From Bacillus bingmayongensis (GTDB lineage Bacteria; Bacillota; Bacilli; Bacillales; Bacillaceae_G), in contig NZ_JH921517.1 of assembly GCF_000299035.1 (NCBI RefSeq), positions 1,167,317-1,231,316 of the forward strand: a stretch of 64,000 nt of DNA. Direction: 5' to 3'. The notes beneath the pieces were generated by a model. The model was given only the letters and a program-made list of their open reading frames with translations. It was not told the DNA's origin and did no database searches. The first letter of the stretch is position 1; the number at the start of each line of letters is the position of its first letter. The translations under genes were made by a program, and so were the position numbers. Shown in pieces: positions 9,785 to 62,147 of the stretch.

Positions 9785-9940
9785 GTAAAAAGCACCTTCC
9801 CTCTCCCATTACGCTTACGAGGTTAGCTGTCGGACTCGGGAAGTGAGAGTTTCCCTACTTAAAAAAGATTCGCCCCAAGTAGCATAAGCTACATAAATGG
9901 TTCCCCCGTTCCAAAAATTTGGATTCAGCAAAAGGTTTTA
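9785..9940 (-). ncRNA. ydaO/yuaA-type c-di-AMP riboswitch
   Basis: Read on the minus strand the region contains the conserved ydaO blocks in order: GCTGAATCC, GGAACGGGGGAACCA, ACTTGGGGCGAATC, then CTTCCCGAGTCCGACAGCT followed by AACCTCGTAAGCG. These match my memory of the c-di-AMP riboswitch consensus, including the CCGACAGCTAACCTCGTAAGCG core. A plausible sigma-A promoter precedes it (TTGACT at 9972-9977, 17-base spacing to TATTTT). Riboswitches of this class turn genes off at high c-di-AMP and usually control K+ or osmolyte transporters or cell-wall hydrolases. Here only a 47-aa ORF follows. No T-rich terminator is obvious at the 3' end. Confidence 0.88.
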
Positions 9941-37690: not shown

Positions 37691-37820
37691 ATTTTCCTCC
37701 TTTTCTACATACAATTTTAGTATGGGCGTTAGAAAAGAAAATATTACTCATTGCGGTTATTTTATATTGTTTGACAATTACAATAGAAGTAGCTATAGTA
37801 AGATATAAAGTGAATATTTT

Positions 37821-37960
37821 CTTATCCAGAGAGGTGGAGGGACTGGCCCGATGAAACCCAGCAACCGCGATGCAGGTGCTAATTCCAGCAGAACATATTT
37901 GTTCTGGGAGATAAGACGAAGATATATGTAACTTCTTCTTATCGAAGAGGTTTTTTTATT
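37821..37960 (+). ncRNA. SAM-I (S-box) riboswitch with terminator
   Basis: Aptamer 37821-37916: CTTATCCAGAGAGGTGGAGG, GACTGGCCCGATGAAACCC, AGCAACC, GGTGCTAATTCCAGCAGA and the closing GGGAGATAAG are the S-box consensus. The P1 stem CTTATC / GATAAG closes it. It is followed by CTTCTTC / GAAGAGG with TTTTTTT (37932-37957), an intrinsic terminator whose arm overlaps a second CTTATC that could pair with GATAAG as antiterminator. SAM binding would shut off the downstream gene (38018-38278). Confidence 0.95.
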
Positions 37961-48506: not shown

Positions 48507-48936
48507 TTAAGCCGTTGTAAACCAATATACGGCAAAATACCTTTCTTCCGTTTCCATAACAAAAAATTCATCATTCCATTCTGGTTCATAAGCATAAGCA
48601 ATTCTGATTCCTTCAATAGGGAACTCGATAGGTTTAATAAGTGGGGCATATCTGTTTCTCAATTCTGTGAATTCTTCTTGGGATATTGTTTTCAGTTCTT
48701 CTTGTTCAGCCCTAAATTTTTTTTTCAAATTCCCATATAGGCATATCTTCAACGTATTTTCCTTTATACCAAAACCAATGCGTATTTCTTCGTTCAATGA
48801 ATTGGCATGTTGCTGCAAAATCCTCCAAGGTTTTAATCGTGTCGTAACTTCTTTTTCCTTTACTATGTTCAAAAACATATATTGTTTCTTCACCACAGCT
48901 TGATAATTCATCATCTTCTATTACAAAATATTTCAT
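48507..48936 (-). pseudogene. Hypothetical protein broken by a frameshift in an A9 run
   Basis: From ATG at 48936 (after AGGAGATGTTAGAT) the minus strand reads MKYFVIEDDELSSCGEETIY ... YVEDMPIWEFEKKI and stops; the adjacent frame continues KKKFRAEQEELKTISQEEFT ... EERYFAVYWFTTA to 48507. The switch is at the run of nine A (plus strand T, 48717-48725). With one base corrected the protein is about 142 aa. Family not recognised; its surroundings suggest an immunity-type protein. The frameshift may be natural or a homopolymer sequencing error. Confidence 0.6.
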
Positions 48937-49175
48937 ATCTAACATCTCCTAGCTTCTTGTCTTATAAACAATCAATCTTTTTCAAAAGAATAATAATATA
49001 TACCATATTGATCAAGAATGAATACATTTTTGTTGGGGTTTTCTGTATAAAATTGTATATATGCTAGTTAGTCTAACACATTATTTTCATACAATCTAAT
49101 TGAATGAAATTGTGAAATAAAGAAGCTTTAAGATTAATAGATAAAAAAGATAAAATCTTCAAAAAGTACTAATAA

Positions 49176-49204
49176 TTGCCAAAAATTTAATTAGTTAGTA
49201 TAAT
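49176..49204 (+). promoter_or_regulatory. Sigma-A promoter of the Y RNA locus
   Basis: TTGCCA (49176-49181), exactly 17 bases, TATAAT (49199-49204). Transcription would start near 49211, 20 bases before the first GGGCAGTG block. Confidence 0.75.
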
Positions 49205-49230
49205 GAAGTCAATAAGTAACAAAAAGAAAA

Positions 49231-49377
49231 GGGCAGTGTAGGAAAGAATTTCTTCGCCTTACACGCGGTAGGTCGCAGGTTCGAATCCTTGCCTCTCCTT
49301 ATGTTTTATAAACATAAGGGGAGTAGCTCAGTTTGGTAGAGCAACATATTGAGTCTTTCCGCCTCTCTCCCTTTTTT
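49231..49377 (+). ncRNA. Bacterial Y RNA (YrlA-type) with permuted tRNA-like module, copy 1
   Basis: Order: 5' block GGGCAGTGTAGGAAAGAATT and TCTTCGCC; a tRNA 3' half with T-arm CAGGTTCGAATCCTTG and acceptor strand CCTCTCC; a linker TTATGTTTTATAAACATAA that closes as a hairpin; a tRNA 5' half GGGGAGTAGCTCAGTTTGGT then AGAGCAACA; 3' block TCTTTCCGCCTCTCTCCC and TTTTTT. GGGGAG pairs with CTCTCC, and AGGAAAGA pairs with TCTTTCC, so the RNA's own ends form a stem where the anticodon arm would be. This is the design described for bacterial Y RNAs, which mimic tRNA and bind Ro60. It lies upstream of an rsr gene. Confidence 0.85.
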
Positions 49378-49399
49378 ATACTTCATATTTAATAGATTT

Positions 49400-49524
49400 G
49401 GGCAGTGTAGAGAAGGATTTCTTCGCTTTGGACGCCGTGTGTCATGGGTTCGAATCCCATCCTTCCAATTTAGGAAGGTAGCTCAGTGGTAGAGCAACGT
49501 AATGAGCCTTTTCGCGTATCTCCC
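49400..49524 (+). ncRNA. Bacterial Y RNA with permuted tRNA-like module, copy 2
   Basis: Second unit, clearly homologous to copy 1: GGGCAGTGTAGAGAAGGATT and TCTTCGCT; T-arm ATGGGTTCGAATCCCAT (perfect 5-bp stem) and acceptor strand CCTTCC; linker AATTTA; 5' half GGAAGGTAGCTCAGTGGTAG with AGCAACG; 3' block CCTTTTCGCGTATCTCCC. GGAAGG pairs with CCTTCC, and GAGAAGG with CCTTTTC (one G-U). The covarying stems in the two copies support the fold. No T-run follows, so it may be processed from a longer transcript. Confidence 0.85.
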
Positions 49525-49551
49525 AAATTCTTAAACATTACATATAACAGA

Positions 49552-49775
49552 AACAGTGTAGATAGCCCATACTTTGTTAAACGCTATAGATTCGATCTTC
49601 ATCGATGCGAGAAGGTCCGCACCGAGTTCGTACTTTTCTTTCATTCATAACGCTAAGGTAGGAGTTACTTCGTCATATAGGGATTGTGTTTGTGGGATTC
49701 GATTCCTGTTTTGATTATTTCTTAAGTGTTAGGGATGAGTGAAAAGAGCAACGTGTATACGTTGCCTTTTTTATT
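49552..49775 (+). ncRNA. Possible third, diverged Y RNA
   Basis: Starts CAGTGTAGATAGCCCATACT and reaches AAACGC, aligning with the 5' blocks of copies 1 and 2 (CAGTGTAGA ... ACGC). It contains GATTCGATC and GGGATTCGATTCC, T-loop-like, plus GCTAAGGTAGGAG reminiscent of a D-arm, and ends at the GCAACGT/ACGTTGC terminator. The tRNA-like fold is not clearly complete. It is either a variant or a decayed copy. Confidence 0.4.
49747..49773 (+). terminator. Terminator between Y RNA locus and rsr
   Basis: GCAACGT-GTAT-ACGTTGC followed by CTTTTTT; about 50 bases before the rsr start codon. Confidence 0.85.
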
Positions 49776-49823
49776 TGCATTTCAACCAGTAGTGTCAAAA
49801 AACATCTGGGGGGGTAAATAATA

Positions 49824-51292
49824 ATGTCAAAGTTTAATCATTCTTCTCATGGAAGCCGTCAAACGTATACAAAAGAGGGCGGAAAAGCTTATAAAATGTA
49901 TGATAAAGATAAATTAGTTACGATGGTATTAACATCTTTTTTTAATGAGCCTAAATTTTATGGAGATAACAGTGAAGAATTAGTTACTATTGCAAAACAA
50001 ATTATGGACAAAGATCCTAAATTTATTGCAAGTTTAGCAGTGTATGCACGTGAAGTGTTCTATATGCGTTCTGTTACACATGTATTAGCAGTGGAACTTG
50101 CAAACCATCCTGAAGGTCGTAAATATGCTCGTCAAACAGTTTCTCGTATTGCGCAGCGTCCTGATGATGTAACAGAAATGATGGCATATCAATTAGGGGG
50201 ATATGGTCGGAAACATCCAATTCCAAACTCTTTGAAAAAAGGGTTAGCAGATGCATTTTCTACATTTGATGAATATCAATTAGCAAAATACAATCGCACA
50301 GGAAAAGACGTTACATTGAAAGATGTATTCCGTTTAGTAAGCCCATCTGCCAAAAAAGGAACAGAACGTTACGAACTTTATAAACGTTTGTTAGAAAATA
50401 CACTACAAGTACCATACACATGGGAAACACAGCTTTCTCAAAAAGGAAACAAAAAAGAAGTATGGGAAGAATTAATTGAAAGCGGTAAAGTGGGGTATAT
50501 GGCCTTACTTCGTAACCTTCGCAATATCGTAAATTCAGGTGCATCAAATATTGATACAGTCTACAACATTCTTCGCGATCCTGAGCGAGTAACAAAATCA
50601 AAACAATTACCATTTCGCTTTTTTTCAGCATATCGTGTTGTGCAAAAAAATTACCGCAAGCAGGAAGCGAATTATTAGATATATTGAATGACGCAATTGA
50701 AGCATCTGTTACAAACATGCCGAGATTATCAGGAACAACATTTATGACAGCGGATATCTCAGGATCTATGACATGTTATCCTGTTTCGAAAGATGGCACT
50801 GTTAAATGCGCAGATATTGCTACACTCATGATGGCAATGGCACATTCCTTCTGTGATAATTCGATTACATCTGTATTCGCAACTGACTTCAAAGCGATAA
50901 ATGTTTCTACTCGTTCTGGCATTTTAGAGAATATGCGTACATTTTTATCAGAAGTTAATAAACATGGATATGGAACAAACTTACATCTTTCTATCAAATA
51001 CTTATTAGATAACAAAATCAAAGTTGACCGCATTCTCGTTTTCTCTGATGAGCAAATGTACGGAGATAGATATGAGGGTAATTCTTCACAAAGTCTTCTT
51101 GAAACATATCGCCGTGAAATAAATCCAGATGTTTGGGTTCACTCTTTCAATCTAAATAGTTACGGTAGCCAACAATTCGTAGGAGAGAAAGCAAATTTAA
51201 TCGGCGGTTGGAGCGAAAAATGTTTGGACTTCATTCATTATGCAGAAGAAGGAACAGGTCCTCTGATTTCAGCTATTGAAAATTATCAATAA
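49824..51292 (+). pseudogene. rsr: Ro60 ortholog Rsr (TROVE domain), frameshifted
   Basis: TROVE/Ro60 family RNA-binding ring protein. First part (49824-50678) carries the HEAT-like TROVE repeats: ELVTIAKQIMDKDPKFIASL, YMRSVTHVLAVELANHPEG, LPFRFFSAYRVVQ. Second part (from about 50650, other frame, to 51292) is the von Willebrand A-like domain with MIDAS TADISGSMTCYP, then DRILVFSDEQMYG. The frames join if the A7 at 50643-50649 is A8 (…QKKLPQAGSELLDILNDAI…), giving about 489 aa, the usual length. So one base separates an intact Rsr from two pieces. Ro60 binds Y RNAs and misfolded RNA and works with PNPase. Ribosome site GGGGGGGTAAATAATA. Confidence 0.85.
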
Positions 51293-54551: not shown

Positions 54552-55448
54552 ATGGGAGTATACCGGAGTGTACAGGTGAATTTTTGGCAAGATGAGTTTG
54601 TGCTTGATTTAACGCCAGAGGAGCGCTATTTTTATATGTATTTGCTGACATGTTCCAAGACGAGACAATGCGGAATTTATCCACTGCCACTACGTTTGGT
54701 AGAGATGGAAACGGGGTATAATCGCGAAACGATTGAGAAGTTGTTGCAGCGGTTTGTTGCGTATGGAAAGATATTATATGACGTGAATACAAAAGAGTTA
54801 TATGTTCTAAATTGGCTGCGTTATAATCCTGTTACGAATACGAACATAGAAAAGTGTGTGTTACGTGAATTAAAGACTGTGAAAAATAAAGAGTTTGTAC
54901 ATATGTTTCTTCAAAGATGCCTCGAGGAAGAGTTGAATATTCCGCTATTGCTAGAATATTTCGGAATGCCGGTCGAAGTATCAGATATGATTCCGCAAGA
55001 AGTTGTTCAAGGTCATGAAGGGGATGAAGTAGTACAAGAAGTAGCGCTAGAAGTGGTAGAGGAAGAAGTAGAAGAAGTGAATCCAGGTAGTAGTGTATTC
55101 ACATTTTATGAACAAAATTTCGGTAGTTTGTCATCTTATGCAGTGGAAATATTAAGTGAATGGATGAACAAGTTATCAGAAGAGCTCGTATTAAAAGCAC
55201 TCCAGATTGTGTATGAAAATAATAAGCGGACGCTTGCTTATGTGAAGGGAATTTTACGAGATTGGCATGGGAAAGGATATACGAAGCTCAGTGAAGTAGA
55301 GGAAGCGGCAGTGAAGTTTCGAAAGAAAGAACCGTCTGGTGTTTATGAGACAGAGGAATTTTTGAAACAATGTGAAGAGTGGGAGAAGAATGTACCGTCT
55401 GAGGAAGAATTGCAGAAATTCTTGCAGGAACACGGATGGAAACCGTGA
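54552..55448 (+). CDS. DnaD domain protein (replication initiation type)
   Basis: 298-aa protein. N-terminal ~110 residues form a winged-helix-like domain (VYRSVQVNFWQDEFVLDLTP, RYFYMYLLTCSKTRQCGIYP, the beta wing KELYVLNWLRYNP) and residues ~185-260 a DnaD/DnaB-C domain (SVFTFYEQNFGSLSSYAVEI, LVLKALQIVYENNKRTLAYV, KGILRDWHGKGY with the YxxxIxxxW motif in the form YVKGILRDW). A Val/Glu-rich linker lies between. Similar proteins load helicase or act in phage/plasmid replication. ATG after GGGAGGAAGAAAT. The chromosomal DnaD is normally shorter, so this looks like a prophage-type relative. Confidence 0.82.
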   Translation: MGVYRSVQVNFWQDEFVLDLTPEERYFYMYLLTCSKTRQCGIYPLPLRLVEMETGYNRETIEKLLQRFVAYGKILYDVNTKELYVLNWLRYNPVTNTNIEKCVLRELKTVKNKEFVHMFLQRCLEEELNIPLLLEYFGMPVEVSDMIPQEVVQGHEGDEVVQEVALEVVEEEVEEVNPGSSVFTFYEQNFGSLSSYAVEILSEWMNKLSEELVLKALQIVYENNKRTLAYVKGILRDWHGKGYTKLSEVEEAAVKFRKKEPSGVYETEEFLKQCEEWEKNVPSEEELQKFLQEHGWKP

Positions 55449-55634: not shown

Positions 55635-55767
55635 AAAAATACTTATATAGCGGTGTAATTGTTGTGACAGTAGCATAGGAGGATGTAAAAGCTTCATAAA
55701 GGAAATCGGTTTTATCCAATGGGTGGTAGTTGGTTTTGAAAATATTTAGAAAATCCAGTTGACACCC

Positions 55768-55842
55768 TCGCTACTCAGTGTTACATTGTAGTTGTAATAA
55801 GTAATAATGAATAGTGTATTTTCTCAACAGCTATTCAGTAAA
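55768..55842 (+). promoter_or_regulatory. PadR promoter region with repeated box
   Basis: TTGACA (55759-55764), then TCGCTACTCAGTGTTACATT and GTAATAAGTAATA (55794-55806). GCTATTCAGT recurs at about 55830-55840, ahead of a TATACT (-10 candidate, about 55871). The same TCGCTA(C/T)TCAGT + GTAATAAGTAATA combination reappears at 56701-56740 before the ABC genes, so it is likely the PadR operator. Confidence 0.5.
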
Positions 55843-55913
55843 AATTTCCCTTAGTACTCTGTTATACTGAATATAAGTCAGACAAAATAGAGGAGGTAAA
55901 GGAGGATTAGAAC

Positions 55914-56234
55914 ATGGAAAATTTAACTGAAATGCTGAAGGGCTCGCTGGAAGGTTGTGTGCTGGAAATCATCAGCCGCCATGAAACCTATGGCTACGAG
56001 ATTACTCGCCACCTGAACGAGCTTGGTTTTACTGAAGTTGTGGAAGGGACGGTCTATACCATCCTCGTGCGATTAGAAAAGAAAAAACTTGTGAATATAG
56101 AAAAGAAACCGTCAGATATGGGGCCGCCCCGCAAGTTTTACTCACTTAATGAGGCTGGCCGTCAGGAACTTGAATTGTTTTGGAAAAAATGGGATTTTGT
56201 ATCATCAAAAATCAACGTCTTGAAGTCAATCTAG
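55914..56234 (+). CDS. PadR-family transcriptional regulator
   Basis: 106-aa PadR protein: MLKGSLEGCVLEIISRHETY and GYEITRHLNELGFTEVVEGT (winged helix; the family G-x-V-Y-x-x-L sequence is GTVYTILVRLEKKKLV), then RKFYSLNEAGRQELELFWKK. These repressors release DNA on ligand binding and often control the adjacent exporter. ATG follows GGAGGATTAGAAC. First gene of a padR-DUF1048-ABC cassette. Confidence 0.92.
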   Translation: MENLTEMLKGSLEGCVLEIISRHETYGYEITRHLNELGFTEVVEGTVYTILVRLEKKKLVNIEKKPSDMGPPRKFYSLNEAGRQELELFWKKWDFVSSKINVLKSI

Positions 56235-56305
56235 CTTCATAAGATATTCCGTCCGATATTTTTGGAGTGTCGTGTTCAGCTTTATAAAAAAGGAGGAAAA
56301 ATAAC

Positions 56306-56647
56306 ATGATGGAAATGTTCAAAAAAATGATTGGTGATAAAAAAGAGTACAAAATGATGATGGCACGGGTTGGAGCCCTGCCAGAGGACTACCAGTTTGT
56401 ATTTAAGAAAATTCAAAACTACATGTGGAATTTCTCAGCGGGCAACGGGATGGATATGCTACACATACAGTATGAATTAATCGAGTTGTTCGAAGCCGGT
56501 GCGGCGGAAGGAAGACAAGTGTTGGAAATCACTGGGGACGATGTGGCGTCCTTTGCTGACGAACTAGTGGCAAACGCTAAAACCTATGTCTCCAAGTATC
56601 GTGAAGATTTGAATCAGAGTATCATGAAGCGATTGAGAAAAAAATAA
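56306..56647 (+). CDS. DUF1048 family protein
   Basis: 113-aa helical protein of the DUF1048 family: KKMIGDKKEYKMMMARVGAL, PEDYQFVFKKIQNYMWNFSA, GNGMDMLHIQYELIELFEAG, EITGDDVASFADELVANAKT. Its function is unknown but it is regularly found between PadR regulators and DrrAB-type ABC exporters, as here. RBS AAGGAGGAAAAATAAC. Confidence 0.88.
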   Translation: MMEMFKKMIGDKKEYKMMMARVGALPEDYQFVFKKIQNYMWNFSAGNGMDMLHIQYELIELFEAGAAEGRQVLEITGDDVASFADELVANAKTYVSKYREDLNQSIMKRLRKK

Positions 56648-56694
56648 ATGCAATGGATAATATTGACTGATTAGCTGGTTATAAATATGAATTA

Positions 56695-56745
56695 CCGCCA
56701 TCGCTATTCAGTTATATTTTTTACCCGGTAATAAGTAATACAGGT
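56695..56745 (+). promoter_or_regulatory. Second copy of the PadR box, upstream of ABC genes
   Basis: TTGACT at 56663-56668, then TCGCTATTCAGTTATATTTT (56701-56720) and GGTAATAAGTAATA (56727-56740), matching the box ahead of padR. Confidence 0.5.
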
Positions 56746-56817
56746 TATCAGTAAGACTAAATAGAAGAGTATAGGCAATCTAGCTCCGCAAAGCGCTTTT
56801 TATAAGGAGGAAAAAGT

Positions 56818-57579
56818 ATGAGCAATGCAGCGATTTCTGTAAAAGGGTTAAAAAAATCCTTTAAAGACAAGGAAGTCTTAAAGGGGGTGGATTTTGAGGT
56901 GCAGCGTGGCGAAATTTTCGCACTGCTGGGCTCAAATGGAGCGGGCAAGACGACGACGGTCAACATCCTCTCGACGTTGATGAAGCCCGATGGCGGCGAA
57001 GTAGGTATTTGCGGTTTTGACGTTCAGCGTCAACCGTATTATGTTCGCCAGAGCATCAGCCTGACAGGGCAGTTCGCAGCTTTAGACGGCATGCTCACCG
57101 GGCGAGAAAACTTGATAATGATTGCCAAGTTGCGTGGAGATTCCAATCCCACTCAAGTCGCCGACAATCTGCTTGCAAGATTCAGCCTGACCGATGCGGC
57201 TAACCGCCGAGCAGACCAGTATTCAGGCGGGATGAAGCGCCGACTTGACATCGCCATGAGCCTGATCGGGACGCCAGCAGTCATTTTTCTCGACGAACCG
57301 ACGACAGGGCTTGACCCTGAAGCACGGATTGAAGTCTGGGATACCGTCAAGGAGCTTGTCGGCGGCGGCACAACCATCTTGCTGACAACCCAGTATCTGG
57401 AGGAAGCTGAACAACTGGCGGACCGTATCGCTATCCTGCATGGCGGAAAAATCATCACGACCGGTACCCTTACCGAACTTAAGGAGATGTTTCCGCCAGC
57501 GAAAGTGGAGTACATCGAGAAGCAGCCGACATTAGAGGAAATTTTCCTCGCGATCATCGGTAAAAAGGAGGAGAGGTAA
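56818..57579 (+). CDS. DrrA-type ABC exporter ATPase
   Basis: 253-aa daunorubicin-resistance-type ATPase: Walker A GSNGAGKTTT, Q-loop SLTGQFAALD, signature YSGGMKRRLDIAMSLIG, Walker B VIFLDEPTTGLDP, H-loop TTQYLEEAEQLADRIA, and the DrrA C-terminal PTLEEIFLAI. ATP-driven drug or lipid export with the next gene. The base composition is clearly richer in G+C than the surroundings, suggesting transfer. ATG follows AAGGAGGAAAAAGT. Confidence 0.92.
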   Translation: MSNAAISVKGLKKSFKDKEVLKGVDFEVQRGEIFALLGSNGAGKTTTVNILSTLMKPDGGEVGICGFDVQRQPYYVRQSISLTGQFAALDGMLTGRENLIMIAKLRGDSNPTQVADNLLARFSLTDAANRRADQYSGGMKRRLDIAMSLIGTPAVIFLDEPTTGLDPEARIEVWDTVKELVGGGTTILLTTQYLEEAEQLADRIAILHGGKIITTGTLTELKEMFPPAKVEYIEKQPTLEEIFLAIIGKKEER

Positions 57580-58329
57580 ATGAAAAGCAAAACAGGCGTA
57601 TTACTAGGGCGTTTAATGCGCAACATCATGCGCAGCCCGGATACAATTATCACGGTGGCGATTACGCCGATTATGATGCTGCTGCTGTTTGTCTACGTAT
57701 TTGGCGGCGCCATAGAGACAGGCACGGACAACTACGTCAATTATTTATTGCCGGGAATCTTGCTGATGGCTATCGCATCCGGCGTCGCTTACACTTCCGT
57801 GCGGCTGTTTACGGATGTAAAGAGCGGGCTGATGGCGCGTTTCATTACCATGCCCATCAAGCGCTCGTCGGTATTGTGGGCTCACGTGTTGACCTCGCTT
57901 GTTTCCAATGCGCTTACTATCTTGGTGGTTATCCTCGTTGCACTTTTGATGGGCTTCCGTTCCAGTGCTGATATCCTGGATTGGCTCGCGGTAGCTGGGA
58001 TACTCGGGATGTTTACGCTGGCACTGACATGGCTGGCTGTCATTCCCGGATTGACAGCGGGATCTATGGAAGGGGCGACAGCCTACTCGTATCCGCTGAT
58101 TTTCCTGCCGTTTATCAGTTCGGCCTTTGTTCCCACTGAAACCATGCCTAAAATTGTCCGTGCGTTCGCTGAGAACCAGCCCGTGACTTCAATCGTGAAT
58201 GCAATTCGTGCCCTCTTGTATGAAGGGTCTGTTGGCAACGATATCTGGATCGCGCTTGCTTGGTGCGTCGGCATCATGATCATCGCTTACTTCTTCGCCA
58301 GTAAAGCATTTAAACGCCAGTTAGGGTAA
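57580..58329 (+). CDS. DrrB-type ABC exporter permease
   Basis: 249-aa ABC-2 permease with six helices: LGRLMRNIMRSPDTIITVAI, NYLLPGILLMAIASGVAYTS, and the DrrB-like FISSAFVPTETMPKIVRAFA followed by ENQPVTSIVNAIRALLYEG. Begins the base after the ATPase stop (TAAATG), with its ribosome site (AAGGAGGAGAG) inside the ATPase gene. Same higher G+C as its partner. Last gene of the cassette. Confidence 0.92.
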   Translation: MKSKTGVLLGRLMRNIMRSPDTIITVAITPIMMLLLFVYVFGGAIETGTDNYVNYLLPGILLMAIASGVAYTSVRLFTDVKSGLMARFITMPIKRSSVLWAHVLTSLVSNALTILVVILVALLMGFRSSADILDWLAVAGILGMFTLALTWLAVIPGLTAGSMEGATAYSYPLIFLPFISSAFVPTETMPKIVRAFAENQPVTSIVNAIRALLYEGSVGNDIWIALAWCVGIMIIAYFFASKAFKRQLG

Positions 58330-59416: not shown

Positions 59417-59588
59417 TTGTACGATTAATGTTTGTAGTTATTTAATAATTAACCTTTATGACAAACCAATATTCTAGAGTGTTTGTAATATAATTAATTT
59501 TAAGAACTATTAAAAATATGCACATCATAATATGTGATTGTTTTATGTTAAATAAATAGGTAATGGAGTGCAATGGGAGGGAGAAGTT

Positions 59589-60722
59589 ATGAATCATATA
59601 CACATTGCAAAAGAAATTCGTTCAGCAATTAAGCTGGGTAATACGGAAAGAGTTGTTGAACTAGTTGGTAATGATATTGAGAGATTAAACATGATGACAC
59701 CATTTGGAACATGGCTCCATGTAGCATCTTCAAAAGGAAGACTTGAGATTGTTAAGCAGCTTATAGCCTTAGGAGCAGACGTGAATCAAAATGGTGGTGT
59801 ATATGGCGGCGGGGCAATCAACGAGGCAGCTTTAGGAGGACATATAGATATTGTTGCATATTTATTGTCTTGTGGCGCAAAAATGGATGTAACTGAACCG
59901 GAAAGGAATCCGTTATTTGGCGCAATTAGTAATGGTCATGTAGATATCGCAGAGCTTCTAATTAAAAGCGGTATTGATTCAAGTGTGAAGTATAGTGATG
60001 ATAGGGATGCATTGGCTTTTGCTCGAGAACTGGGGCAAACTGAGGTTGTTGCATTGATAGAAAACATGAATGGGAGTAATTCAAATGGAACGAATTACGA
60101 TAATCAAAATCAACATGATAAAATTTTGGAACATGTAACGAAATACTTCGGGTCTCCAATTACGACTATAGGTGAAATTATACCTGGTAGTAGAGTAGGG
60201 ATTCATATTCATATCATACCACCATCAAAGGAGAATCATTTCATCACTCTTGTGACGACAGGGATGAGTGATTATCCGATGGACAATTCAGAAGAAGCAA
60301 GTGAGTTTAAGTATGCTGAATTGATACAAAAGTTACCTGTAGACTGGCCGATAAAAAAAGAGGATTTGAAGGATCAAAATATGTATTGGCCTCTAGGCTG
60401 GTTAAGAAAAACAGCACATATTCCGCATGCTTATGACGGATGGTTAACTGAAGGGGTAATTCTTCCAAATGGAGAACCGCCGCAACCTTTTGCGTCTCGT
60501 ACAAAACTGTCCTGTATTATGGTATGTAAAGTGCAAGAAAAGGGATTGGAGAAATTAGTGACTCCACAAGATGATCTCATTAATTTTTATACACTCGTAC
60601 CAATTTATGAGGAAGAACGAACTCTGGCCTTAGAGAAAGGTTATAAATACTTATTAAATAAAATGAATGAAAAAGGTATCACAGACATTCTTGATACGAA
60701 AAGAGTAAATGTAGGAGTATAG
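59589..60722 (+). CDS. Ankyrin-repeat plus SUFU-domain protein (immunity type)
   Basis: 377-aa two-domain protein. N-terminal ~155 residues hold four ankyrin repeats (MTPFGTWLHVASSKGRLEIV, INEAALGGHIDIVAYLLSCG, PLFGAISNGHVDIAELLIKS). Residues ~180-375 are a suppressor-of-fused (SUFU) domain (ILEHVTKYFGSPITTIGEII, HIHIIPPSKENHFITLVTTG, WPLGWLRKTAHIPHAYDGWL). SUFU and ankyrin proteins are frequent immunity proteins of polymorphic toxin systems. Start 59589 follows GGGAGGGAGAAGTT. It is followed by an Imm47 gene. A decayed paralogue lies at 47990-48291. Confidence 0.88.
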   Translation: MNHIHIAKEIRSAIKLGNTERVVELVGNDIERLNMMTPFGTWLHVASSKGRLEIVKQLIALGADVNQNGGVYGGGAINEAALGGHIDIVAYLLSCGAKMDVTEPERNPLFGAISNGHVDIAELLIKSGIDSSVKYSDDRDALAFARELGQTEVVALIENMNGSNSNGTNYDNQNQHDKILEHVTKYFGSPITTIGEIIPGSRVGIHIHIIPPSKENHFITLVTTGMSDYPMDNSEEASEFKYAELIQKLPVDWPIKKEDLKDQNMYWPLGWLRKTAHIPHAYDGWLTEGVILPNGEPPQPFASRTKLSCIMVCKVQEKGLEKLVTPQDDLINFYTLVPIYEEERTLALEKGYKYLLNKMNEKGITDILDTKRVNVGV

Positions 60723-60752
60723 AAAACGGTCATTACAGGGGAGTGGGATATT

Positions 60753-61550
60753 TTGATTGAAGGTATAAATTTAATGAATTGTCTTTGGTATGGAAATAGA
60801 CCAATTGAATCGATTTCAAATATAAAAAAGAATATTTTGCATGCAAAAACAGAAAAGGAAGTTTTATTAAATGTAATTGAGCTTTTTAAGGCTGGTGATT
60901 TTTCACAAAAACAATTGTTAATCCAACTAATGAATCATACGAATGATGAAAGTGTATTAAACTTATGTATTCGCATTTTTTGTTCTATTGCTACTCATGA
61001 AGATATTAGGAATTCTAACAATCTTACATTTTTAGCTTCAGCAAGTGAATACATAGTAGATACGTTTTCATCAGCAGCTGTAACATCGCTCTCTATGGAG
61101 ATTATTCCGTATTTATTAGTGTTACTTGAAGAGTGGGATGAAATAACAGATACTTCGATGGTCATAAGGAATTCTATTGATTTTTTTATAAACTATCAAG
61201 ATGTGATTGGAGAAGAAGTAAGTGTAGAAGAGATTGGGGGATTTTATCTTAATTACACGAAATACTGTGATGTGGAAAAATACTATTTCTATCAGAGTCC
61301 AGTGTTTCCTGGAGATTTAACAAAAATATTGTTTGAAAGAGTAATAAGGGCGGCACATCATGAAGAACCATTAAAAATGGAATTTATACCATCCTTACTA
61401 TCAATTTGGACAGGAGAGAAAGTGCCCGCTGATTATTATACGATAATTTGCAATGATAATTATAAAGACTTTGTAACGTATATAGATACTATTTCGAAAA
61501 GAAGTTGGGAAAGTGGGCAAAAATATTTTTATGGGTTTAAGTTATCATAA
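60753..61550 (+). CDS. Imm47-family immunity protein
   Basis: 265-aa protein resembling Imm47: NCLWYGNRPIESISNIKKNI, QLLIQLMNHTNDESVLNLCI, RIFCSIATHEDIRNSNN, IGGFYLNYTKYCDVEKYYFY and the ending SWESGQKYFYGFKLS. HEAT-like helical protein, thought to neutralise a co-encoded toxin; no toxin gene is nearby. TTG start after GGGGAGTGGGATATT. Thirty bases after the ankyrin/SUFU gene, likely the same transcript. Confidence 0.75.
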   Translation: MIEGINLMNCLWYGNRPIESISNIKKNILHAKTEKEVLLNVIELFKAGDFSQKQLLIQLMNHTNDESVLNLCIRIFCSIATHEDIRNSNNLTFLASASEYIVDTFSSAAVTSLSMEIIPYLLVLLEEWDEITDTSMVIRNSIDFFINYQDVIGEEVSVEEIGGFYLNYTKYCDVEKYYFYQSPVFPGDLTKILFERVIRAAHHEEPLKMEFIPSLLSIWTGEKVPADYYTIICNDNYKDFVTYIDTISKRSWESGQKYFYGFKLS

Positions 61551-61715
61551 TGCAGTCGTTGTTTTTTATGTTATCTATGAGTATTTAATTTATGCTTCAC
61601 TTTTGGAACAACAAATTTTTTATATGAGATTGTTATGTTTTGAAGATTTTTTCTGTTTATACCTTATTTTTGATAGAATGGAAGATAAATGGGAAGTGAA
61701 AGGGAGATGGACATC

Positions 61716-62147
61716 TTGATTTATGATAAAGCAAAGTACTATTTTGATGACCTTCCAGAAGATTTGCCAATTGAACAAGCATATGTACATACTGGTATGT
61801 TTCTTGGGTGGATTATTGACAATCATTTATTTAGTAAAGCGTTTGAAGAAAAGTCTCGAGAGGATATTAATAAGTTTAATCTTAGACAAATGACTGGCAC
61901 GCAAATCTATATAAAATGGGGTGGTGTGCTTGCAGATGACATGTTAAATGATGAGGGTAATCAATTTGCAATGTATTACTTTAATAGTGATAATGATTGG
62001 AAATATCTATATGATTATAGGGATGTTTTTGTAGATGCAGGCGATACACTTTATCATGCACAAGATACTTGGGAAAACTATTTTGAATTAAAAGAAGAGG
62101 TTAATTATAGCTATCTCAATTGGAACAACAACATACGGAAATCGTAA
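61716..62147 (+). CDS. DUF7832-type (immunity-like) protein
   Basis: 143-aa acidic protein: YDKAKYYFDDLPEDLPIEQA, YVHTGMFLGWIIDNHLFSKA, LRQMTGTQIYIKWGGVLADD, MLNDEGNQFAMYYF, HAQDTWENYFELKEEV. The HTGMxLGWIIDN and GxLxDxMLNxEGNxFxxYYF blocks are those of DUF7832 proteins. TTG start at 61716 chosen because AAGGGAG lies ~10 bases before. Another orphan immunity-type gene. No membrane segment. Confidence 0.7.
   Translation: MIYDKAKYYFDDLPEDLPIEQAYVHTGMFLGWIIDNHLFSKAFEEKSREDINKFNLRQMTGTQIYIKWGGVLADDMLNDEGNQFAMYYFNSDNDWKYLYDYRDVFVDAGDTLYHAQDTWENYFELKEEVNYSYLNWNNNIRKS

What the first reader, a model, noticed from the sequence alone, without database searches (positions are those of the whole stretch)
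49176..51292. Ro60 (rsr) with two tandem permuted-tRNA Y RNAs in a B. cereus-group genome
Between a consensus promoter and an rsr gene lie two ~130-147-nt units with tRNA halves in reverse order (T-arm and acceptor strand first, then D-arm half). The acceptor strands pair differently in each copy yet stay complementary (GGGGAG/CTCTCC versus GGAAGG/CCTTCC), and the outer stems likewise covary. Established knowledge: bacterial Y RNAs (YrlA) mimic tRNAs and bind Rsr/Ro60 to steer RNA decay. Such a cluster with multiple Y RNAs in an accessory, immunity-rich region of Bacillus is unusual and might be a transferred RNA-surveillance module.
Basis: partly seen in the sequence, partly recalled or inferred. 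Interest (0 to 1): 0.87.

Follow-up and report, generated by a model that had tools for sequence, protein, structure and literature searches.

The report
Twin tRNA-mimic Y RNAs beside Rsr
A Bacillus-type chromosome carries two back-to-back genes for small RNAs that imitate a rearranged transfer RNA, next to a now split gene for the Ro60-like protein that such RNAs normally guide; the set looks imported from a clostridial or phage source, where arrays of such RNAs turn out to be common.

Summary
U1 (49231-49371) and U2 (49400-49524) are tandem Rsr-linked Y RNAs of the YrlA design: a long stem made by both ends and a circularly permuted tRNA part (T arm, acceptor strands, D arm). A covariance model built only from clostridial-type Y RNAs scores them 68.4 and 76.8 bits; tRNA arrays reach 26.5, and the best of 206 genomes without a TROVE hit reaches 44.7. 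Both miss Rfam's YrlA cut-off of 69. The adjacent rsr encodes its TROVE and vWA halves in different frames; the break lies near an A7 run at 50644-50650. Rsr is of Clostridia/phage type (48-54% identity), not the Bacilli type (23-28%), so transfer is the best reading; the donor is unresolved. Several Y RNAs per rsr is not unusual: 16 of 20 loci of this type have at least two, and one viral contig has ten. Some viral Y RNAs instead enclose an unpermuted tRNA body with an anticodon arm. Function here is inferred; the broken rsr makes a relic a serious rival.

The parts
49176..49204 (+). promoter-like site TTGCCA-17-TATAAT upstream of U1
   Evidence: 11 of 12 consensus matches; promoter-like sites are no more frequent in the region than in shuffles
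49231..49371 (+). Y RNA U1: outer stem GGG.AG/CT.CCC, upper stem 49241-49247 with 49354-49360, T arm 49275-49292 (bulged U), acceptor strands 49293-49298 and 49318-49323, D arm 49326-49342
   Evidence: R1 68.4 bits, E 1.7e-14; Rfam YrlA 33.5 bits; pair counts
49400..49524 (+). Y RNA U2: outer stem as in U1, upper stem 49410-49416 with 49507-49513, T arm 49444-49460, acceptor strands 49461-49466 and 49473-49478, D arm 49481-49495
   Evidence: R1 76.8 bits, E 1.5e-16; Rfam YrlA 44.9 bits; pair counts
49551..49723 (+). two possible Y RNA remnants (49551-49642 with CAGTGTAG...TACTTTG, 49655-49723 with GTTACTTCG)
   Evidence: R2 6.6 and 7.2 bits, E about 1: inconclusive
49748..49775 (+). terminator-like hairpin with a T-rich tail between the Y RNAs and rsr
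   Evidence: consensus scan (3 found in the region against 1.1 in shuffles); fold of 49727-49776 z -3.94
49824..50678 (+). rsr, first piece: TROVE domain (the last codons after the A7 run are out of the homologous frame)
   Evidence: PF05731 E 3.2e-41, 142.4 bits; phrog_850
50644..50650 (+). run of seven A at which homology changes frame
   Evidence: ORFs; runs listed
50684..51292 (+). rsr, second piece in another frame: Ro60 vWA domain
   Evidence: PF25045 E 7.2e-9; phrog_850 E 1.7e-20

Best explanation
49231-49524 encodes two tandem Rsr-type Y RNAs. In each, the 5' and 3' ends form the long stem that Rsr is expected to grip, and this stem takes the place of the anticodon arm of a circularly permuted tRNA, leaving T arm, acceptor and D arm as a tRNA-like head (shown: sequence, pairing, compensatory changes, linkage of the same RNAs to rsr elsewhere). 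The module was acquired horizontally from a Clostridia-type or phage-type source (shown: type of Rsr; inferred: direction and carrier). By analogy with studied systems the head would dock PNPase or a tRNA-handling partner onto the Rsr ring and so steer decay or protection of structured or broken RNAs (inferred). In this strain rsr is split by a frame change, so the RNP is probably impaired unless the frame is recoded or the sequence is wrong there (inferred).
For: R1 (14 sequences, none from the window) finds U2 and U1 with 76.8 and 68.4 bits, next window match 11.7. With U1 and U2 included 98.4% of 443 cells pair, 16 of 28 pairs change on both sides, slid structures reach at most 55.0%. R1 matches exactly the 6 of 39 family genomes that have TROVE, each less than 0.9 kb from it on the same strand; in the clostridial order all 19 of 19 TROVE genomes score at least 49.1 bits and the 206 others at most 44.7. 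Rsr: 48-54% identity to 18 clostridial rows, 23-28% to 15 Bacilli rows. Function by analogy: passages of PMC7790460 and PMC8394870.
Against: Both RNAs miss Rfam's YrlA cut-off. rsr is in two frames. 12 of the 19 TROVE genomes had supplied sequences to R1; the other 7 score 49.1-152.6 bits. R1 also gives 38-45-bit matches in 13 genomes without TROVE, 4 of them over the whole model. The window's Rsr stands on a long branch and its place has modest support (84/62; SH-aLRT 80 beside a viral contig that itself has no Y RNA match). A terminator-like hairpin stands between Y RNAs and rsr. No expression or binding data.
Confidence: 0.72

Rival explanations
1. A dying relic: the module arrived, rsr then lost its frame, further Y RNAs downstream decayed, and U1 and U2 are orphans still recognisable because the loss is recent.
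For: rsr in two frames; weak Y-like stretches at 49551-49723; neighbouring gene 48507-48945 also changes frame, at a T9 run; another rsr locus, L012, is broken as well.
Against: U1 and U2 keep their pairing; the second rsr piece has no stop over 213 codons; its lower identity (44% against 53%) is matched by outgroups and so is no sign of decay. A sequence error is not excluded, although 31 of 62 runs of seven or more lie in open frames.
Confidence: 0.4
2. Programmed recoding: ribosomes or RNA polymerase slip at the A7 run, so that a TROVE-only protein and a full Rsr are both made.
For: The break lies at a run of seven A and both pieces stay open.
Against: No relative with a break at this place was seen; the 18 clostridial copies in the tree are single open frames, so conservation of the site cannot be tested.
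Confidence: 0.08
3. U1 and U2 act without Rsr, as decoys or sponges for tRNA-binding enzymes or nucleases.
For: rsr is broken while the RNAs keep their fold; PMC7790460 raises competitive inhibition of an anticodon nuclease by the tRNA-like part of YrlA as a possibility (passage).
Against: U1 and U2 have no anticodon arm; strong R1 matches elsewhere occur only in genomes with TROVE, which argues for dependence on Rsr.
Confidence: 0.08
4. The units are the ends of ordinary tRNA genes brought together by deletion, or a tRNA array.
For: YrlA-type models do give weak matches in real tRNA arrays (28.8 bits with Rfam; 26.5 with R1).
Against: Acceptor strands that would come from different tRNAs pair and covary; long Y stems are present; ARAGORN finds no tRNA in the window; the same units precede rsr in other genomes.
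Confidence: 0.01

Closest known systems
YrlA Y RNA (Rfam RF02553; Salmonella Typhimurium YrlA)
   Same: Long stem of both ends, tRNA-like part with D, T and acceptor arms, linkage to rsr (model alignment; PMC8394870 passage).
   Different: Scores below the family's cut-off; no rtcBA seen beside it (tblastn of a clostridial RtcB against the window finds nothing); two copies in tandem; U1 has an extended acceptor hairpin.
   Same: Rsr type; GGGCAGTG...CTCCC ends; permuted tRNA head; several Y RNAs before rsr.
   Different: rsr intact in the 18 copies used for the tree; RtcB with a WCX-domain regulator upstream in L001 and in G004, absent in the window; loop motif TTACTTC there, TTTCTTC in U1 and U2.
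Rsr-Y RNA-PNPase particle of Deinococcus radiodurans (RYPER)
   Same: A Y RNA joining Rsr to a partner is the model used here for function (PMC7790460 and PMC8394870 passages).
   Different: No partner known here; that RNA was not compared by sequence.
Putative Y RNAs beside an rsr-like gene in Listeria phage CKA15
   Same: rsr-like gene within 2 kb of highly transcribed regions in a phage of a Bacillota host (PMC12282133 passage).
   Different: There the RNAs are only suggested to be Y RNAs; not compared by sequence here.

Membership tests
YrlA-type Y RNA (by architecture) | Long stem formed by the 5' and 3' ends | tested here: met
   Both units; pairs covary
YrlA-type Y RNA (by architecture) | tRNA-like head with T arm, acceptor and D arm in permuted order | tested here: met
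   Sequence and model alignments; U1 T stem has a bulged U
YrlA-type Y RNA (by architecture) | Gene linked to rsr | tested here: met
   rsr pieces follow at 49824-51292
YrlA-type Y RNA (by architecture) | Binding to Rsr; modification by DusA and TruB | not testable with these tools
   Needs the bench
Rfam RF02553 (YrlA) as now drawn | Score at or above the gathering cut-off of 69 bits | tested here: not met
   44.9 and 33.5 bits. Matches beside rsr in L001, L009, L011, L012, L018 also score only 33.8-39.9. I therefore file U1 and U2 as Rsr-linked Y RNAs of the R1 group, not as members of RF02553
Rsr / Ro60 | TROVE domain | tested here: met
   142.4 bits, cut-off 23
Rsr / Ro60 | vWA domain of Ro60 type | tested here: met
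   36.2 bits, cut-off 27.7, on the second piece
Rsr / Ro60 | One continuous protein | tested here: not met
   Two frames; hence an rsr locus of unknown activity
rsr-Y RNA-rtcBA RNA-repair operon | RtcB beside rsr and Y RNAs | tested here: not met
   tblastn of the L001 RtcB protein finds no match in the 64 kb window at E 1e-3; the rest of the genome is not held

The most novel reading that the evidence does not exclude
The window holds a chromosomal offshoot of a phage-spread, modular Y RNA system. Phages and clostridia carry arrays of up to ten or more Rsr-type Y RNAs that present different pieces of tRNA in two topologies: permuted, with the Rsr stem in place of the anticodon arm (as U1 and U2), and unpermuted, with the Rsr stem around a D-anticodon-T body, once with an acceptor stem and CCA (L113). 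Such an array could be a set of tRNA decoys or sensors that brings anticodon nucleases and tRNA enzymes to the Rsr ring, as a counter-defence or tRNA-repair device.
Probability: 0.3. Interest if true: 0.8.

Novelty: new member of a known kind. Interest (0 to 1): 0.52.

Why it matters
It adds a well supported pair of Y RNAs in a Bacillus-type chromosome, of a group that Rfam's cut-off passes over, and a covariance model (R1) whose strong matches coincided with the presence of TROVE in the two samples tested (39 and 225 genomes). It shows a Clostridia/phage-type Rsr module in a lineage whose sampled relatives carry another type. The comparison also turned up Y RNA arrays in viral contigs with two topologies of tRNA mimicry, which makes the open question of why Y RNAs imitate tRNAs directly testable: RNAs with and without an anticodon arm can be challenged with anticodon nucleases.

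Tried and rejected
Considered and rejected: fused ordinary tRNA genes. Considered and dropped: decay of the vWA half judged by its lower identity, because six outgroup rows (five phages, one Deinococcus plasmid) show the same difference. Not confirmed: third and fourth Y RNAs at 49551-49723.

Led nowhere: near-identity searches with window 1-25000 in plasmids and 40000-64000 in phages gave no match; 40000-64000 in plasmids gave 5 records, none over rsr. The genome-contig scan gave one relative; the single-protein scan of viral contigs none, the alignment scan 145, of which 80 were kept. tblastn of the TROVE piece matched 88 phage and 57 plasmid records, all under 60% identity. The family of G099, whose locus L010 has an unpermuted Y RNA, has no other TROVE genome among 18. 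PADLOC has no model for either rsr piece.

Rows left out: the tree leaves out L007, L012 and L043 (broken or partial), near-copies L068, L069, L071, L073-L075, and the divergent low-scoring L072, L077, L080-L082. The 13 weak R1 genomes were not examined one by one. Of the 80 viral loci, R2 was run on 40 only.

Papers: founding papers PMC4201824, PMC6047535, PMC6281776 and PMC10870794 are not held. I saw passages of six papers (PMC12282133, PMC7790460, PMC8394870, PMC8190616, PMC7824862, PMC7765460) and search listings only of the rest. I make no claim that arrays or unpermuted Y RNAs are absent from print.
Full report
WHAT IS THERE. The stretch 49176-51292 holds, on the + strand, a promoter-like site (49176-49204, 11 of 12 matches; such sites are no more frequent here than in shuffles), two tandem RNA units U1 (49231-49371) and U2 (49400-49524), a less clear stretch that ends in a terminator-like hairpin (49748-49775), and rsr. 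The units are 76% alike over 67 bases at their start and 84% over 38 bases at their end. In each, the first and last bases pair (GGG.AG with CT.CCC, then seven pairs), and between them stand a T arm, the 3' strand of an acceptor stem, a loop, the 5' strand of the acceptor and a D arm. The order is that of a tRNA opened in the anticodon arm and closed at the acceptor. ARAGORN calls no tRNA in the window.

MORE THAN CHANCE. Rfam's YrlA model matches U2 with 44.9 bits (E 1e-8) and U1 with 33.5 bits (E 2.1e-5) in a scan of 731 bases, both under its cut-off of 69; at the default cut-offs the whole window shows only two riboswitches. As a fairer test I built a model, R1, from 14 permuted-tRNA Y RNAs that lie beside rsr in 12 genomes of the clostridial order and in G004, without the window. 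It finds U2 with 76.8 and U1 with 68.4 bits; the next window match has 11.7 bits, and real tRNA arrays have 26.5. With U1 and U2 added, 98.4% of 443 cells form standard pairs, 16 of 28 pairs carry changes on both sides, and slid versions of the structure reach at most 55.0%; the sequences are related, so the shuffle counts given there are not probabilities. U1 and U2 differ at 16 letters of the paired columns, yet U2 keeps 27 of 28 standard pairs; random placing of as many changes gives 15.7 on average and never 27 in 20000 draws. U1 keeps 24 of 28 in that alignment, in part because a bulged U in its T stem is misplaced. Fold energy is unusual for U1 (z -3.57) and less so for U2 (z -1.72); the unconstrained folds show the outer stem and acceptor of both but pair the T arm of U2 and the D arm of U1 otherwise.

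LINKAGE TO RSR. TROVE (PF05731) is found in 7 of 299 genomes sampled from the phylum of G001, 24 of 398 from the class of G400, 19 of 225 from the order of G001, 6 of 39 from the family of G400 and 1 of 5 from its genus; the samples overlap. R1 matches exactly the same 6 of 39 family genomes, each less than 0.9 kb from the TROVE match and on its strand. In the order of G001 it matches 32 of 225 at E 1e-5: all 19 with TROVE, whose best scores begin at 49.1 bits, and 13 without, all at 44.7 bits or less; 9 of these 13 match only an inner part of the model and 4 (G604, G607, G609, G685) the whole of it. Large searches use stricter filters that lose weak matches. Of the 19, 12 had supplied sequences to the model; the other 7 score 49.1 to 152.6 bits.

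THE GENE. rsr is in two pieces. The first ORF (49824-50678) has the TROVE domain, the second (50684-51292) the Ro60 vWA domain, in another frame. Homology changes frame at a run of seven A, 50644-50650. Of 62 runs of seven or more in the window, 31 lie inside frames open for at least 150 aa (two of these 31 are the rsr runs at 50619 and 50644), so the sequence is not generally broken at such runs; but the neighbouring small gene at 48507-48945 (- strand) also changes frame, at a T9 run, so an error is not excluded. The vWA half is less like its clostridial relatives (44%) than the TROVE half (53%), but the six outgroup rows show the same difference, so this is no evidence of decay. Intact rsr copies exist in relatives.

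WHERE IT CAME FROM. Over the TROVE part the window is 48-54% identical to 18 clostridial rows and 23-28% to 15 Bacilli rows, among them G389 of the same genus-level group as G400. The tree puts it with the clostridial rows (84/62) on a long branch. Viral contigs hold copies of the same type: 145 relatives, 80 kept, up to 56% identical to the window; in a quick tree with them the window stands beside viral contig L117 (SH-aLRT 80), inside a starred set of 45 rows, 25 of them viral and 15 clostridial. L117 itself has no Y RNA match at E 0.001, and that tree warns of long branches. The source is thus of Clostridia or phage type, not further resolved. RtcB, which stands upstream of the Y RNAs in L001 and in G004, is not in the window (tblastn).

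ARRAYS ARE COMMON. Of 20 loci of this Rsr type (L001, L012, L037-L054), 19 have at least one Y RNA at E 0.001, 16 at least two, and one has four; L043, without one, lies at the end of its contig and begins inside the gene. Of the 46 RNAs counted, 30 had been used to build R1 or R2 and match by construction. There are two sorts: permuted-tRNA Y RNAs and shorter ones without the tRNA part (alignments A1 and A3). Of 40 viral loci scanned with both models, 27 have at least one, 18 at least two, 4 at least five, and L106 has ten with an eleventh at E 0.0036; of the other 40, scanned with R1 only, 18 have at least one. Some loci are identical or nearly so (L112 and L114, L121 and L122). Viral nature is supported for some by neighbours: integrases (L104, L108), a small terminase subunit (L117), a UvsX-like recombinase (L140); in L102 an RlaP-type RNA-repair protein and a CCA-adding-type enzyme follow rsr. 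Y RNAs in L101 and L106 have the TTCTTC form of the loop motif seen in U1 and U2.

UNPERMUTED tRNA BODIES. In several loci ARAGORN calls a tRNA inside a Y RNA: L106 202-275, L113 744-816 and 883-958, L121 2615-2683 (L122 the same), L140 2256-2330, L150 2873-2946 (L151 nearly the same), and L010 (L028 is the same place). There the Rsr-type stem surrounds D arm, anticodon arm and T arm in the normal order. The predicted folds show the arms within the stem for L113 858-987 (z -1.90) and L150 (z -2.19); for L140 and L010 the energy is no better than shuffles (z -0.01, -0.03), L121 has z -0.97. L113 883-958 also has a seven-pair acceptor stem followed by ACCA (read). As a control, of 149 tRNAs called in 82 loci 23 have the loop motif near their start; a flanking helix of nine or more pairs is found in 11 of these 23 and in 17 of the other 126, so the helix alone does not separate the groups, and duplicates are among the 23. 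Model support is independent but weak to moderate: L106 169-289 33.7 bits, L113 858-987 43.2 (R2), L121 2581-2698 25.7, L140 2242-2341 21.6. Whether such RNAs have been described I could not find out.

HOW IT PROBABLY WORKS. In Deinococcus Y RNA tethers Rsr to PNPase, and Salmonella YrlA is modified by DusA and TruB (PMC7790460 and PMC8394870, passages). PMC7790460 also raises the idea that the tRNA-like part of YrlA inhibits an anticodon nuclease. U1 and U2 lack an anticodon arm, so as decoys they would suit enzymes that read the elbow or acceptor (inference). With rsr split, the module may be idle in this strain; the relic reading is therefore given 0.4. The readings overlap (true Y RNAs by origin, dying module), so the confidences do not sum to one.

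VERDICT. Real, well supported and of a known kind; the tandem is not exceptional once clostridial and viral loci are seen. What is new is the place, the type of Rsr in this lineage, the model, and the side finding of arrays with two topologies.

Noticed in passing
L106 21-1638; also L101, L107, L115 (viral contigs): Arrays of five to ten Y RNAs beside rsr at E 0.001, in L101 interspersed with tRNA genes.
   Followed up: partly
L106 169-289, L113 728-835 and 858-987, L121 2581-2698, L140 2242-2341, L150 about 2862-2970: Y RNAs that enclose an unpermuted tRNA body with anticodon arm; L113 858-987 also has an acceptor stem and CCA.
   Followed up: partly
L010, - strand, about 3055-2450: Up to four Y-like RNAs upstream of rsr by eye; one holds a Leu-like tRNA body (cmscan tRNA 49.4 bits; ARAGORN), another an anticodon-arm-like hairpin alone.
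   Followed up: partly
L040, L041, L044, L045, L046, L050: A further permuted-tRNA Y RNA lies after rsr, besides those before it.
   Followed up: no
L102 4634-6749: An RlaP-type RNA-repair protein and a CCA-adding-type nucleotidyltransferase follow rsr in a viral contig.
   Followed up: no
L014 2542-2605: A short Y RNA match (R2 20 bits, E 0.028) upstream of rsr in a 635-kb uncultured phage record.
   Followed up: no
L012 (G004), about 1450-2170: Another broken rsr, behind three Y RNAs and RtcB.
   Followed up: no
window 48507-48945, - strand: A small gene without known family changes frame at a T9 run.
   Followed up: no
window 55739-58280: PadR, DUF1048 and ABC-transporter block 92.6% identical to a Peribacillus plasmid; GC rises to 0.52 within it: likely imported.
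   Followed up: no
window 59568-62147: Ankyrin-SUFU, Imm47 and DUF7832 genes, an immunity-type cluster.
   Followed up: no
window 54552-55448: Phage-type replication protein (phrog_6251, E 2e-59) 3 kb beyond rsr.
   Followed up: no
window 9796-9940 (-) and 37819-37917 (+): c-di-AMP and SAM riboswitches, ordinary.
   Followed up: no
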